DNA of 64,000 nucleotides from Bacillus sp. 491mf (GTDB taxonomy: Bacteria; Bacillota; Bacilli; Bacillales; Bacillaceae_G): positions 62,001-126,000 of the forward strand of contig NZ_FOLV01000003.1 of NCBI RefSeq assembly GCF_900112415.1, given 5' to 3'. The notes below the pieces were generated by a model. It worked only from the letters and a program-made list of their open reading frames with translations. It did no database searches and was not told where the DNA came from. Of the stretch, positions 50,046 to 53,687 are shown one piece after another. Positions within the stretch are counted from its first letter, which is position 1; each line of letters begins with the position of its first letter. A program made the translations under genes and the position numbers.

Positions 50046-50064
50046 CAACTTTGCAACAGAATTC
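50046..50064 (-). mobile_element. IS6-family terminal inverted repeat, left boundary of module
   Basis: CAACTTTGCAACAGAATTC, whose complement begins TTCTGTTGCAAAGTTG. This matches the end of IS6-family elements (IS26/IS240/IS431 type) and faces opposite to the copy at 53661. No transposase remains nearby. Confidence 0.65.
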
Positions 50065-50490
50065 TAAAAAGTTATATTGATAAAAAATAAGAAAATTATA
50101 TTTATATTTTGTTCTAAAGGTATTGTTTTATATGGATTTTGCAAATCATTACAATGATTCTTTTAGAGGAAACTAGTCTTTACTTATAATATTCAGCTTA
50201 GTATGACCATTTTTTAATGATAATTATCTGTTTTTTATTGATAAAATTCTAAAATATGGTTTTATTTTGAAAAAATTGTTATTATTTATTTGAAATTAAT
50301 TATATCGACTTAAAGAAATTTGAAGTTTTTAAAAAACAAAATTATGAAAATATGCATAAATTTGTTTTTTGCTTGGCTTTATTATATTTTCCTGATATAA
50401 TAAAAAATTTTTAGGAGTTTTCCTTAATTTTCATGAAAAAATATCAAACTGGATGAACTGTAAACTATAACTATACTTGGAGGAAAAGTC

Positions 50491-51723
50491 ATGTATGCAA
50501 AAATTATTGAAAAGAAGCTCGAATCTTTGAAAGAAAGCGGACAATATCGAGAATTTGTTACAATTAATCGGATGCGTGGCCAATATCCTTTAGCACAGTT
50601 GAATGGCCAGAAAGATGGGCAACCAGTTGTCGTTTGGTGCAGCAATGACTATCTAGGAATGTCTCAGCACCCAGTAGTTACCGAAGCAATGCATGATGCA
50701 ATTCGAACATTTGGTGCTGGTTCAGGCGGATCTCGAAATATAGGTGGTACACATTATCATTACCCTGCACTTGAATCTTCACTTGCGGAATGGCATGGTA
50801 AAGAAGCCGCATTAGTTTTTCCTACAGGATATGGCTCGAATGATGCAACATTACAATGTTTACTTCGTCTATTTCCAAATTGCATAGTATTTTCTGACGA
50901 ACGAAATCACGCTTCAATTATTAATGGTATACGTAGCACTCAAGTCGAACGAGAGATATTTAGACATAATGATGTTAACCATTTGGAAGAGTTACTTGCA
51001 GCTCAACCACATGATCGAGCAAAAATTATTGTGTTTGAATCAGTATACTCAATGGATGGCGATATCTCACCGATTCAAAAAATTGCGAATCTTGCAGAAA
51101 AATATAACGCTTTAACATTTCTTGATGAAGTACATGCAATCGGTATGTACGGTCCTCGCGGAGCAGGAATAGCTGCTGAACTAGGTCTTGTGGATCGATT
51201 GGACTTTATTCAAGGAACAATGGCAAAAGGTATTGGAGTAATCGGGGGATACATTGCAGCTTCATCATTACTAATTGACGCTGTTCGTTCTTTTGCATCT
51301 GGTTTTATTTTTACAACATCCTTACCACCAGCTGTTGTCGCGGCCTGTTATGCTAGTGTGGAACACTTAAAATCTTCGGATAACGAGCGGAACGCTCTAC
51401 ACCAAAAAACTAGCATGTTAAAAGAAGCACTTGCTCAAGCAAATATTCCGATAATGGACTCAAGTGAAACGCATATTCTCCCTGTACTCATTGGTGATGC
51501 AAAAAAATGTAAAGCTGCTGCCCAACGTCTACTTGAACAACATCACGTCTATCTGCAACCCATTAATTCACCAACGGTTCCTGTCGGCACAGAACGCTTC
51601 CGAGTTAATGTTACACCAAATCACACTGAGGAACAGATAGCACAACTGGCCGTTTCATTAACAGAAGTTTTTAATTATTTCGATATTCCTTTTGCACCGC
51701 AGAACGAAGTGTTAGACGTATGA
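50491..51723 (+). CDS. 5-Aminolevulinate-synthase-like alpha-oxoamine synthase
   Basis: A 410-residue PLP enzyme of the ALAS/KBL/AONS family, closest in pattern to alphaproteobacterial ALAS (glycine + succinyl-CoA to 5-aminolevulinate). Visible: SNDYLGMSQHP, GAGSGGSRNIGGTHYHYPAL, VFSDERNHASIINGIR, FESVYSMDGDISPI, LDEVHAIGMYGPRGAGIA (Asp212, His215) and the PLP lysine Lys246 in QGTMAKGIGVIGGYIA. The C-terminal QPINSPTVPVGTERFRV is ALAS-like, but the usual Thr-Pro-Ser/Thr-Pro motif reads NVTPNH (373-378), so the acyl-CoA or amino acid may differ. ATG 50491 follows GGAGG. The stop overlaps the next gene. Bacillus uses the glutamate route to aminolevulinate, so acquisition is likely. Confidence 0.88.
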   Translation: MYAKIIEKKLESLKESGQYREFVTINRMRGQYPLAQLNGQKDGQPVVVWCSNDYLGMSQHPVVTEAMHDAIRTFGAGSGGSRNIGGTHYHYPALESSLAEWHGKEAALVFPTGYGSNDATLQCLLRLFPNCIVFSDERNHASIINGIRSTQVEREIFRHNDVNHLEELLAAQPHDRAKIIVFESVYSMDGDISPIQKIANLAEKYNALTFLDEVHAIGMYGPRGAGIAAELGLVDRLDFIQGTMAKGIGVIGGYIAASSLLIDAVRSFASGFIFTTSLPPAVVAACYASVEHLKSSDNERNALHQKTSMLKEALAQANIPIMDSSETHILPVLIGDAKKCKAAAQRLLEQHHVYLQPINSPTVPVGTERFRVNVTPNHTEEQIAQLAVSLTEVFNYFDIPFAPQNEVLDV

Positions 51724-52631
51724 CAATTTTTATGTACATCTTCTGCTTAATAGTTTGGGGATTGAACTTTATTGCAGTAAAAATACAAGGTACTCCTGTA
51801 AGCCTTGAATTGTCATTAACCTATCGCTTGGTAGGGGCTGCACTAATGTTTATTGTCCTCATGTGCGTGGTACGTCCAAATGGTAGGCCTTCTCGTAAAG
51901 ATGTTTTTCCCCTTGTTACTTTTGGGGTATGTAACTTAGCTCTAAGTTACTTGTGTTTATACTACGCGACAATTTGGATTTCTGCTGCACTAGTAACGCT
52001 GCTGTTTTCACTGAAGACAGTTCTGACACCAATTGCACTTCGTATATTTCTAGATGAGCGTCTTCATCCTCGAATTCTAATAGGGGGAATAGTTGGTATT
52101 GTAGGTGTTTCTATATTAGTTTATCCACTACTAACACAGGGCTCTAGTACAAGTGATCTAAAAGGAATAGGCCTCGCATTGTTTGGAACTATACTTACAG
52201 CTATTGGTGATGCAGCTTCCGCTCGAAATGCACGACGTGGTATTAATGCTGTTTATTCGAATAGTGTTGGCTTTGTTGTGGCTTCGATACTTTTACTTGC
52301 TGTTTGTACCTTTCAGGAACAGAACTTTACACTACCAACGTCCGTTTCTTATCTTGGAGCTTTGGGATTTTTAACTGTATTTGCTTCCTTTGGGGCATGG
52401 ATGTTCTACCTCAAGCTAGTAGAACGAATCGGTGCATCAGTTAGTAGTTATATGGTGGCACTCTTTCCGGCAATAGGTGGGGTTGCCTCTGTTGCGATTG
52501 GAGATTCTACACCTACTCTCTATTTACTGTTCGGATGTTTATTTAGTTGCATTGGAGCAGCAATTGCACTAGGATTTCGCTTACCATACAGGAATCGGAA
52601 TATTATGAGAAATGAAAGCCCAGGGAATTAA
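51720..52631 (+). CDS. EamA-family (DMT) transporter
   Basis: A 303-residue membrane protein with ten predicted helices in two EamA repeats; the repeats are marked by LCLYYATIWISAALVTLLFS with the following LKTVLTPIALRIFLDERLH, and by SVSSYMVALFPAIGGVASVA. DMT proteins export amino acids and small metabolites. Its ATG overlaps the stop of the ALAS-like gene (ATGA), so the two are translated together, implying that it exports that enzyme's product or a derivative. It ends at a clear terminator. Confidence 0.9.
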   Translation: MTIFMYIFCLIVWGLNFIAVKIQGTPVSLELSLTYRLVGAALMFIVLMCVVRPNGRPSRKDVFPLVTFGVCNLALSYLCLYYATIWISAALVTLLFSLKTVLTPIALRIFLDERLHPRILIGGIVGIVGVSILVYPLLTQGSSTSDLKGIGLALFGTILTAIGDAASARNARRGINAVYSNSVGFVVASILLLAVCTFQEQNFTLPTSVSYLGALGFLTVFASFGAWMFYLKLVERIGASVSSYMVALFPAIGGVASVAIGDSTPTLYLLFGCLFSCIGAAIALGFRLPYRNRNIMRNESPGN

Positions 52632-52654
52632 AAAATTCCCATGGGCTTTATTTA
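52614..52654 (+). terminator. Terminator after the EamA gene
   Basis: AAGCCCAGGGAATT, AAAAA loop, AATTCCCATGGGCTTTATTT; begins inside the last codons. The following 52655-52988 gap is AT-rich with no gene. Confidence 0.88.
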
Positions 52655-52988
52655 TAAAATATAATACTGTTCCCTTATAGTATGAACAGATCTACAGGGT
52701 TAAATAAGGTATAACTACCTAACAAATTGCATTCTTTATTTACTGATTTTTTAAATAAACATGATCGTTTACTTTCAATAATGACAAATAAATCAATACA
52801 TCTTTTTATTAAAAGTTATTGTTGAAAATATCAAAAAACTCTTTGCATTGAATAGATATCTTAATAAAAGGGTGGATCGCTTATTATAATCCGTATTTTC
52901 ATTACCTTTCAGTTATGAAATATTTTCTTAATACAAAAACATTTTATTAATGCATCCCTACTATTAATATTAAGGAGAAAGGACAATC

Positions 52989-53648
52989 ATGAAATATAAA
53001 TCAGTATTTGATATTATTGGTCCTATTACTATTGGAACACCTAGTGCTTATGGAGTAGAAGCAACAAAGATAGGACATATTGTTCGTCAGCTATTTTTAA
53101 AGCCTCCAGAAAAAATCGAAATTTCTTTATATGGGGCATTCAAAAAAGCTGATTGCACTTTTGGGTCAGACGTAGCACTTGTTGGTGGTATTTTGGGCTT
53201 TGAAATGGATGACTCACTATTCTCTAAAGCACTTACAATTGCAGCAGAAAGAGGAATTACAGTTAATTGTATAGAAGAGATTGCAAAACCGTCTTATCCC
53301 AATACAGTAAAGATTACTTTATACAAAGGTGAAGATAAAATTGAGATGATTGCTTGTTCGATTGGTTGGGGAAAAATCAAAGTTATTGAGATTAATGGTT
53401 TTGATTTGAATTTAAATGAAACAAGATCAGCTCTTCTTATTATGAACAATGATCATTTTGGTACCATTTCGTCTGTAACTTCTATATTAGCAACACGTAA
53501 AATTAATATTAATATGATACGTGTATCGCAACAGGAAAAAGGAAAAATATCTCTATTGGTAATTGAAACTGAGGAACTATTAAATCATGAAGTAATTGAG
53601 GAAATTAAAGGATTACCAAAGATTTATCAAACACTAGCCTTAAGTTAG
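52989..53648 (+). CDS. SdaAB-like protein (L-serine dehydratase beta subunit homologue)
   Basis: A 219-residue protein matching SdaAB in length and layout: N-terminal KYKSVFDIIGPITIG domain, VALVGGILGFEMDD, and a C-terminal ACT domain (ALLIMNNDHFGTISSVTSIL). In real SdaAB the motif GPSSSHTAGA follows; here the same place reads GTPSAYGVEATKIG, and the GHGTDVAL block reads TFGSDVAL, so key residues are lost. No alpha subunit (SdaAA, Fe-S domain) is nearby. Dehydratase activity is therefore doubtful; a sensory or scaffold role is possible. ATG 52989 follows AAGGAGAAAGG. It has its own transcription unit, inside the IS-bounded module. Confidence 0.85.
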   Translation: MKYKSVFDIIGPITIGTPSAYGVEATKIGHIVRQLFLKPPEKIEISLYGAFKKADCTFGSDVALVGGILGFEMDDSLFSKALTIAAERGITVNCIEEIAKPSYPNTVKITLYKGEDKIEMIACSIGWGKIKVIEINGFDLNLNETRSALLIMNNDHFGTISSVTSILATRKININMIRVSQQEKGKISLLVIETEELLNHEVIEEIKGLPKIYQTLALS

Positions 53649-53660
53649 ACAGTTTTATTA

Positions 53661-53687
53661 GGGTTCTGTTGCAAAGTTTGAAAAAAG
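53661..53687 (+). mobile_element. IS6-family terminal inverted repeat, right boundary of module
   Basis: GGGTTCTGTTGCAAAGTTTG followed by AAAAAAGC, the left end of an IS6-family element pointing right. Shares TTCTGTTGCAAAGTT with the inverted copy at 50046-50064. The element body is missing. Confidence 0.7.

What the first reader, a model, noticed from the sequence alone, without database searches (positions are those of the whole stretch)
50046..53687. IS6-bounded module: ALAS-like synthase, coupled EamA exporter and diverged SdaAB-like protein
Two copies of the IS6-type end (shared TTCTGTTGCAAAGTT) lie at 50046-50064 and 53661-53687 in opposite orientation, arranged as the inner ends of a composite transposon whose IS bodies are gone. 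Between them are a 5-aminolevulinate-synthase-like enzyme, an EamA transporter whose start overlaps the synthase stop, and a stand-alone SdaAB-like gene. Bacilli make aminolevulinate by the glutamate route, and hemEHY is already present 40 kb away, so this enzyme is not needed for haem. Overlap with an exporter suggests a secreted aminoketone: aminolevulinate itself, or a CqsA-like signal. The first point is seen in the sequence; the product is inference.
Basis: partly seen in the sequence, partly recalled or inferred. Interest (0 to 1): 0.82.

Follow-up and report, generated by a model that had tools for sequence, protein, structure and literature searches.

The report
Alaremycin-type synthase coupled to exporter
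A two-gene unit, also seen in other bacilli and on some of their plasmids, probably makes and pumps out a small look-alike of the haem precursor 5-aminolevulinate, using the kind of enzyme that starts the antibiotic alaremycin but without the later steps.

Summary
The genes are real, but the synthase is AlmA-type rather than plain ALAS: 72% identical to the homologue in Streptomyces sp. A012304, the alaremycin producer, and inside a 40-row AlmA-type set (98/99) apart from the ALAS, C5N and KBL/BioF rows. Its relatives show two gene orders that do not overlap: almA with AlmC, nearly always with an acetyltransferase and MFS exporter (35 loci), or almA with EamA alone (11, window included). AlmC is undetected in 7 of 7 almA-EamA genomes searched and found in 3 of 3 controls. 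The ATGA overlap recurs in 8 of 9 loci read. Best reading: succinyl-CoA plus an amino acid, probably serine, gives an untailored ALA analogue exported by EamA. Substrate and product are inferred; ALA itself is a live rival.

The SdaAB-like gene is probably a bystander: it follows a hairpin, occurs beside no other almA found, and lacks the SSSHT motif. The right IS6 end is a real 145-bp remnant; the left is a short repeat only. No close relative's genome was reachable, so the empty site is untested.

The parts
50491..51723 (+). AlmA-type alpha-oxoamine synthase, 410 aa, first gene of the pair
   Evidence: ORF; ALAS model above cut-off; 72% to the homologue in Streptomyces sp. A012304; tree
51720..52631 (+). 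EamA-family (DMT) exporter, 303 aa; its ATG overlaps the synthase stop (ATGA)
   Evidence: ORF; Pfam EamA 96 bits, two stretches; overlap in 8 of 9 loci read; member of a 5-row set of almA-coupled transporters, 100/99
50479..50483 (+). GGAGG, likely ribosome-binding site of the synthase
   Evidence: read in the sequence
50373..50401 (+). promoter-like site (TTGGCT, 17 nt, TATAAT, with TG before the second hexamer); weak evidence
   Evidence: consensus scan only; 24 sites found in the region against 17.4 expected
52615..52649 (+). hairpin with T-rich tail overlapping the end of the EamA gene, likely intrinsic terminator
   Evidence: fold -22.2 kcal/mol, z -4.74, 0 of 200 shuffles as low; not listed by the consensus terminator scan
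52989..53648 (+). SdaAB-like protein (ASB plus ACT domains, 219 aa) without the SSSHT motif; probably a neighbour, not a part of the pathway
   Evidence: TIGR00719 174.2 bits against 161.2; 45-48% to 20 canonical SdaAB; beside no other almA locus
50047..50061 (-). short IS6-like end, interior pointing left; no longer IS homology found
   Evidence: exact 15-mer
53658..53802 (+). remnant of one end of an IS6-family element (end of its transposase gene on the minus strand), interior pointing right
   Evidence: 95.9% over 145 bp to an IS6 element of a Bacillus arachidis plasmid

Best explanation
50491-52631 is a two-gene operon of an almA-EamA type. The synthase, an AlmA-type PLP-dependent alpha-oxoamine synthase, condenses succinyl-CoA with a small amino acid, most likely L-serine, with loss of CO2, to a free alpha-aminoketone resembling 5-aminolevulinate (5-amino-6-hydroxy-4-oxohexanoate if serine is used). 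The translationally coupled EamA exporter removes it, protecting the producer's own porphobilinogen synthase and delivering the compound outside, where it could act on the haem pathway of neighbours. It works like the alaremycin route cut down to its first step with a different exporter. Shown here: gene content and coupling, phylogeny, lack of the tailoring genes beside this kind of almA, and lack of AlmC in the 7 genomes of this kind searched. Inferred: substrate, product, what EamA carries, biological effect. The labels AlmA, AlmB and AlmC are recalled from the literature and assigned here by homology and gene order.
For: 72% identity to the homologue in Streptomyces sp. A012304, the strain named as alaremycin source in a cited title. 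AlmA-type set of 40 rows at 98/99. 24 columns conserved in 36 AlmA-type rows and rare in 25 ALAS rows; the EamA and ABC kinds differ consistently at one column only, 193. EamA and AlmC exclude each other: 11 and 35 loci, 0 with both. AlmC 0 of 7 against 3 of 3 controls. ATGA overlap in 8 of 9 loci. Window EamA inside an all-coupled set of 5, 100/99. A phosphoglycerate dehydrogenase reaching only position 321 of the 525-position model, thus without its regulatory end, stands upstream of almA in L002, L083 and L033, which hints at serine supply. E. coli EamA and RhtA raise ALA export (passages of PMC9951541). Alaremycin displaces ALA in porphobilinogen synthase (passage of PMC12670364).
Against: No biochemical datum for this enzyme or its nearest relatives was seen; serine as AlmA substrate is recalled, since the biosynthesis paper is not held. 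That L071 is the alaremycin gene of that strain rests on homology and gene order, not on a paper seen. Ser at the ALAS Thr83 position is shared with the 8 C5N rows, so it does not prove serine use, and in that class it has been tied to cyclization (PMC4525017 section 16). The serA link is seen only in almABC loci. EamA orthologues occur without almA in 18 of 21 genomes, so the transporter need not be specific. Several loci are short contigs, so neighbours could be missed.
Confidence: 0.55

Rival explanations
1. The enzyme uses glycine like a C4 ALA synthase and the pair makes and secretes 5-aminolevulinate itself, as public good, signal or haem-flooding agent.
For: Curated ALAS model far above cut-off (561.9 against 338.55 bits). 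E. coli EamA exports ALA (passages of PMC9951541). C5N ALAS with the same Ser handle nascent 5-aminolevulinate (PMC4525017 abstract passage).
Against: The enzyme lies in the AlmA-type set, nested among almABC loci, not with alphaproteobacterial ALAS, and carries the 24 AlmA-type columns. The A012304 homologue scores 554.7 bits on the same ALAS model, so the score does not separate the two.
Confidence: 0.27
2. A CqsA-like signal synthase that uses another acyl-CoA and makes a secreted aminoketone signal.
For: Same fold family; CqsA chains match at E about 1e-38. Free alpha-aminoketones can dimerise to dihydropyrazines (general chemistry, recalled).
Against: CqsA-type model 201.4 bits against a cut-off of 428. 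Residues recalled as the succinyl-CoA contacts of ALAS (Arg of GQYREF, Asn of SRNI, Thr of SPTVP, last Arg of TERFR) are present.
Confidence: 0.06
3. A second, C4 route to ALA that feeds the cell's own haem synthesis.
For: ALAS annotation; such genes are named hemA in plasmid records.
Against: Coupled to an exporter, scattered among bacilli (5 of 397 genomes), and glutamate-route organisms do not need it (recalled).
Confidence: 0.05
4. A cyclizing ALAS of the C5N kind.
For: Ser at the Thr83 position, tied to cyclization in that class (PMC4525017 section 16).
Against: C5N rows form their own set at 100/98; the second C5N mark, Thr365 to Ser, is absent (SPTVP keeps Thr); no C5N partner genes were noticed beside it.
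Confidence: 0.03

Closest known systems
Alaremycin biosynthesis, Streptomyces sp. A012304 (Okui et al. 2025, doi 10.1021/acsbiomedchemau.5c00045; only the citation seen)
   Same: First enzyme 72% identical and in one AlmA-type set
   Different: No acetyltransferase, no GFO/IDH/MocA oxidoreductase and no MFS exporter nearby; EamA instead
5-aminolevulinate synthase (C4 pathway HemA)
   Same: TIGR01821 above cut-off; solved ALAS structures are the best PDB matches
   Different: About 46-54% identical to the ALAS rows of the scan, outside that set in the tree, Ser for Thr at the amino-acid specificity position
Non-cyclizing hemA genes of actinomycetes, the 'black box' of PMC4525017 (section 23 read)
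   Same: ALAS-like genes without a haem role, shared between streptomycetes and bacilli, one example from Geobacillus thermoglucosidasius; the plasmid locus L083 is from that species
   Different: That text reports no conserved context; here two contexts, almABC and almA-EamA, are seen
E. coli EamA and RhtA as ALA exporters (passages of PMC9951541)
   Same: Same transporter superfamily, export of an ALA-like amino acid proposed
   Different: There broad exporters in an engineered strain; here a gene translationally coupled to the synthase
SdaAB, iron-sulfur L-serine dehydratase beta chain
   Same: Whole-length match above cut-off
   Different: 45-48% against 64-100% among 20 canonical ones; TPSAYG for PSSSHT and TFGSD for GHGTD against the 3 canonical rows printed; no alpha chain beside it

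Membership tests
AlmA (alaremycin-type synthase) | closest to the A012304 enzyme, apart from ALAS and C5N | tested here: met
   72% identity; 40-row set at 98/99; 24 shared columns
AlmA (alaremycin-type synthase) | condenses serine with succinyl-CoA (recalled) | not testable with these tools
   needs an enzyme assay; biosynthesis paper not held
Alaremycin gene cluster | acetyltransferase, oxidoreductase and MFS exporter with almA | tested here: not met
   none near the window gene and none in the whole window at E 1e-3; the rest of the genome is not held
C4 5-aminolevulinate synthase | curated ALAS model | tested here: met
   561.9 bits against 338.55; the A012304 homologue also passes
C4 5-aminolevulinate synthase | groups with alphaproteobacterial ALAS; Thr at position 83 | tested here: not met
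KBL / BioF / CqsA | curated model of each above cut-off | tested here: not met
   272.3 and 313.9 of 493 and 460, 349.5 of 426.45, 201.4 of 428 bits
EamA/DMT transporter | two EamA domains | tested here: met
   2 stretches, 96.2 bits
SdaAB | whole-length model match | tested here: met
   174.2 against 161.2 bits
SdaAB | SSSHT motif (role recalled) and neighbouring alpha chain | tested here: not met
   motif against 3 printed canonical rows; no such ORF beside it
IS6 composite transposon | IS6 copies or remnants on both sides | tested here: inconclusive
   145-bp remnant on the right, only a short end on the left
IS6 composite transposon | empty site in relatives | not testable with these tools
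   no close genome reachable

The most novel reading that the evidence does not exclude
almA-EamA pairs are an undescribed, mobile minimal system of bacilli and staphylococci that secretes a free, non-acetylated ALA analogue as a haem-pathway antimetabolite (or a pyrazine-forming signal). EamA is the self-protection gene, and EamA-only genomes (18 of 21 carriers in the sample) and EamA-only Priestia plasmids are immune non-producers.
Probability: 0.3. Interest if true: 0.72.

Novelty: new variant of a known kind. Interest (0 to 1): 0.55.

Why it matters
If right, genes that annotation calls hemA or 5-aminolevulinate synthase in a number of bacilli, staphylococci and streptomycetes are not haem genes but first steps toward haem-pathway inhibitors; nine plasmid records carry such a gene at 57% identity or more. 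The split between two gene orders (acetyltransferase and oxidoreductase with MFS, or nothing with EamA) predicts two end products from one enzyme and gives a direct test of what each exporter carries.

Tried and rejected
Comparison with close relatives of the window: no genome is held; a flank gene searched in 397 Bacillales genomes matched 4 at E 1e-100 or better, at most 72% identical, so none is a close relative. The family of G001 gave 19 genomes; all 19 have some match at E 1e-60 but only G001 has an AlmA-type enzyme (82%; the others 35-39%).

Thr83-to-Ser as proof of serine use: rejected, since the C5N rows share it.

Left flank as an IS remnant: pieces of 49735-50110 match 6 plasmid records at 74-85%, none annotated under the match (four opened); no match in phages for 49735-50070; a pattern for the left end gave 0 in viral contigs. 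Phage records: 19 with a match to the synthase, best listed 35.4% (10 of 19 listed).

Rfam scan of 49000-54600: 3 matches, all below gathering scores. No tRNA in the window. Papers: alaremycin occurs in 3 held papers, and passages were read in two of them; searches found none; one search found one unrelated paper, listing only; one search was a listing only. PMC11184883 was read in passages.

A first EamA tree had two rows (L086, L115) labelled orphan that are second copies of L003 and L007; it was rebuilt without them and only that one is used. The AlmA tree left out 13 named loci (near-copies, duplicates, broken or partial genes) and rows scoring under 190 bits or shorter than 330 residues. 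L028 is labelled ALAS there only because no AlmC lies near it. The Staphylococcus and Macrococcoides rows have long branches and unlike composition.
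Full report
WHAT IS THERE. Three intact genes on the + strand: a 410-aa synthase (50491-51723), a 303-aa EamA transporter (51720-52631) whose ATG overlaps the synthase stop, and, 357 bp further on, a 219-aa SdaAB-like gene (52989-53648). A hairpin with a T-rich tail lies at the end of the EamA gene (52615-52649; -22.2 kcal/mol, z -4.74), although the consensus terminator scan did not list it. 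The first two genes have a G+C of 0.40, the third 0.32, the window 0.37. I take the operon to be two genes, not three.

IS ENDS. The 15-mer is present exactly twice, in opposite orientation. The right copy lies in a 145-bp stretch 95.9% identical to one end of an annotated IS6-family element on a Bacillus arachidis plasmid, reaching into the end of its transposase gene. The left copy did not extend into that element, and the best longer match is 28 nt at 92.9%, E 0.08. The composite-transposon frame is plausible but half proven. The empty-site test could not be run.

THE SYNTHASE. The curated ALAS model scores 561.9 bits against a cut-off of 338.55; KBL, BioF, serine palmitoyltransferase and CqsA-type models are below their cut-offs. 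A scan of one genome per species, which needs exact short peptides of the query and keeps the best 80, gave 79 loci. One, L071, 72% identical, is from Streptomyces sp. A012304, the strain in the title of a cited paper on alaremycin biosynthesis (that paper is not held). That L071 is the alaremycin gene is my inference from homology and gene order; the labels AlmA, AlmB and AlmC are recalled. In a tree of 87 rows the 14 KBL/BioF rows split off at 100/100, the 8 C5N rows at 100/98, and the AlmA-type rows, window included, form a set of 40 at 98/99. 24 columns are conserved in 36 AlmA-type rows and rare in 25 ALAS rows. Thr83 of ALAS is Ser in all 36, but also in the 8 C5N rows, so it does not prove serine use; the literature ties that change to amino-acid specificity and, in C5N enzymes, to cyclization.

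TWO GENE ORDERS. Neighbours within 8 kb (E 1e-6): 35 loci have AlmC, 34 of these AlmB and 34 an MFS exporter; 11 distinct loci have EamA, the window among them; none has both. L008 and L032 are two loci of one genome, and L002 and L083 are near-identical. L028, L043 and L075 have neither AlmC nor EamA (L043 keeps part of an MFS gene, L075 is a partial synthase). On L083, Pfam names AlmB a GNAT acetyltransferase, AlmC a GFO/IDH/MocA oxidoreductase and the exporter MFS. AlmC was then sought in whole genomes with the L010 protein at E 1e-8: 0 of 7 almA-EamA genomes, 3 of 3 almABC controls, one of which is the source of the query. The Staphylococcus capitis AlmC is only 32% identical to that query, so the result for the staphylococcal genome is weaker. 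The window itself holds no AlmB, AlmC or MFS homologue at E 1e-3. The ATGA overlap holds in 8 of 9 loci read, not in L034; on the Priestia plasmid the two genes are divergent. Enzymes of the two orders differ consistently at one column only. The EamA order needs four changes on the tree, at least three forced by well-supported branches, so exporter and tailoring genes have been swapped or lost more than once.

MOBILITY AND ORPHAN EXPORTERS. The pair lies on a 14-kb plasmid of Macrococcoides canis typed as mobilizable and, divergent and beside an IS3 transposase gene, on a Priestia megaterium plasmid (a second such record was not opened). An almABC set lies on a 9.3-kb mobilizable plasmid of Staphylococcus capitis and on a Parageobacillus plasmid. 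In 397 Bacillales genomes AlmA-type enzymes were found in 5 (E 1e-110) and the EamA in 21 (E 1e-60); 3 genomes have both, so 18 have EamA alone. Only a few candidates per genome were scored, so these are lower bounds. The window's EamA belongs to a set of 5, all almA-coupled (100/99), while the Priestia and Peribacillus coupled ones lie among orphans. Five other Priestia plasmids carry the EamA and are not among the 6 records with an AlmA hit of 60% or more; three of the five were opened and show no hemA within 4 kb. These could be immune non-producers, or the exporter may simply have a broader job.

SERINE LINK. In L002, L083 and L033 a phosphoglycerate dehydrogenase stands upstream of almA; the L083 one passes its model at positions 1-321 of 525, thus lacks the regulatory end. 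This suggests serine supply, but only for almABC loci. In the window the neighbour is an SdaAB-like protein, 45-48% identical to 20 canonical SdaAB that are 64-100% identical to each other, with TPSAYG where the 3 printed canonical rows have PSSSHT. These 20 are the best-matching loci of 281 genomes with a match. Its second half also resembles the regulatory end of phosphoglycerate dehydrogenase. It could be a serine-binding pseudo-subunit, but it stands beside no other almA-type locus, so I leave it out of the system.

MECHANISM. Most likely: succinyl-CoA plus L-serine gives an ALA analogue, exported by EamA, which also protects the producer. Precedent for export: E. coli EamA and RhtA raise extracellular ALA (passages of PMC9951541). 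Precedent for activity: alaremycin displaces ALA in porphobilinogen synthase and inhibits growth of P. aeruginosa (passage of PMC12670364). The serine step rests on the structure of alaremycin and on recall. ALA itself as product is the main rival; a haem bypass, a CqsA-like signal and a cyclizing enzyme are less likely.

NOVELTY. A 2015 paper described non-cyclizing hemA genes of actinomycetes, with exchange between bacilli and actinomycetes, as a black box without conserved context (PMC4525017 section 23). I found no description of the almA-EamA pair in the searches, in a library that lacks most subscription journals. I file it as a new variant of a known kind.

Noticed in passing
window 52989-53648: Diverged SdaAB-like protein that has lost the SSSHT and GHGTD motifs and has no alpha chain beside it; perhaps a serine-binding pseudo-subunit.
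   Followed up: partly
window 49735-50010: Patchwork left flank with pieces 74-85% similar to unannotated intergenic stretches of plasmids of Bacillus, Staphylococcus, Cytobacillus, Pseudalkalibacillus and Klebsiella.
   Followed up: partly
L112 (Staphylococcus capitis plasmid, 9275 bp): A small mobilizable plasmid whose cargo is an almABC-like set with a LysR regulator.
   Followed up: partly
L028 (Fluviispira multicolorata), 8001-9224: AlmA-type synthase in a Bdellovibrionota genome with neither AlmC nor EamA nearby; the next genes are of another kind.
   Followed up: no
L005 and L131: The coupled almA-EamA of L005 and the orphan EamA of L131 share a similar GNAT gene upstream, a possible before-and-after pair.
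   Followed up: no
window 3339-4265 and 17755-19155: By reading only: a secreted pore-former-like protein and a zinc phospholipase C-like protein.
   Followed up: no
window 48693-49733: C45-family autoproteolytic acyltransferase/hydrolase (NF040521, 229.2 bits) just left of the module.
   Followed up: no
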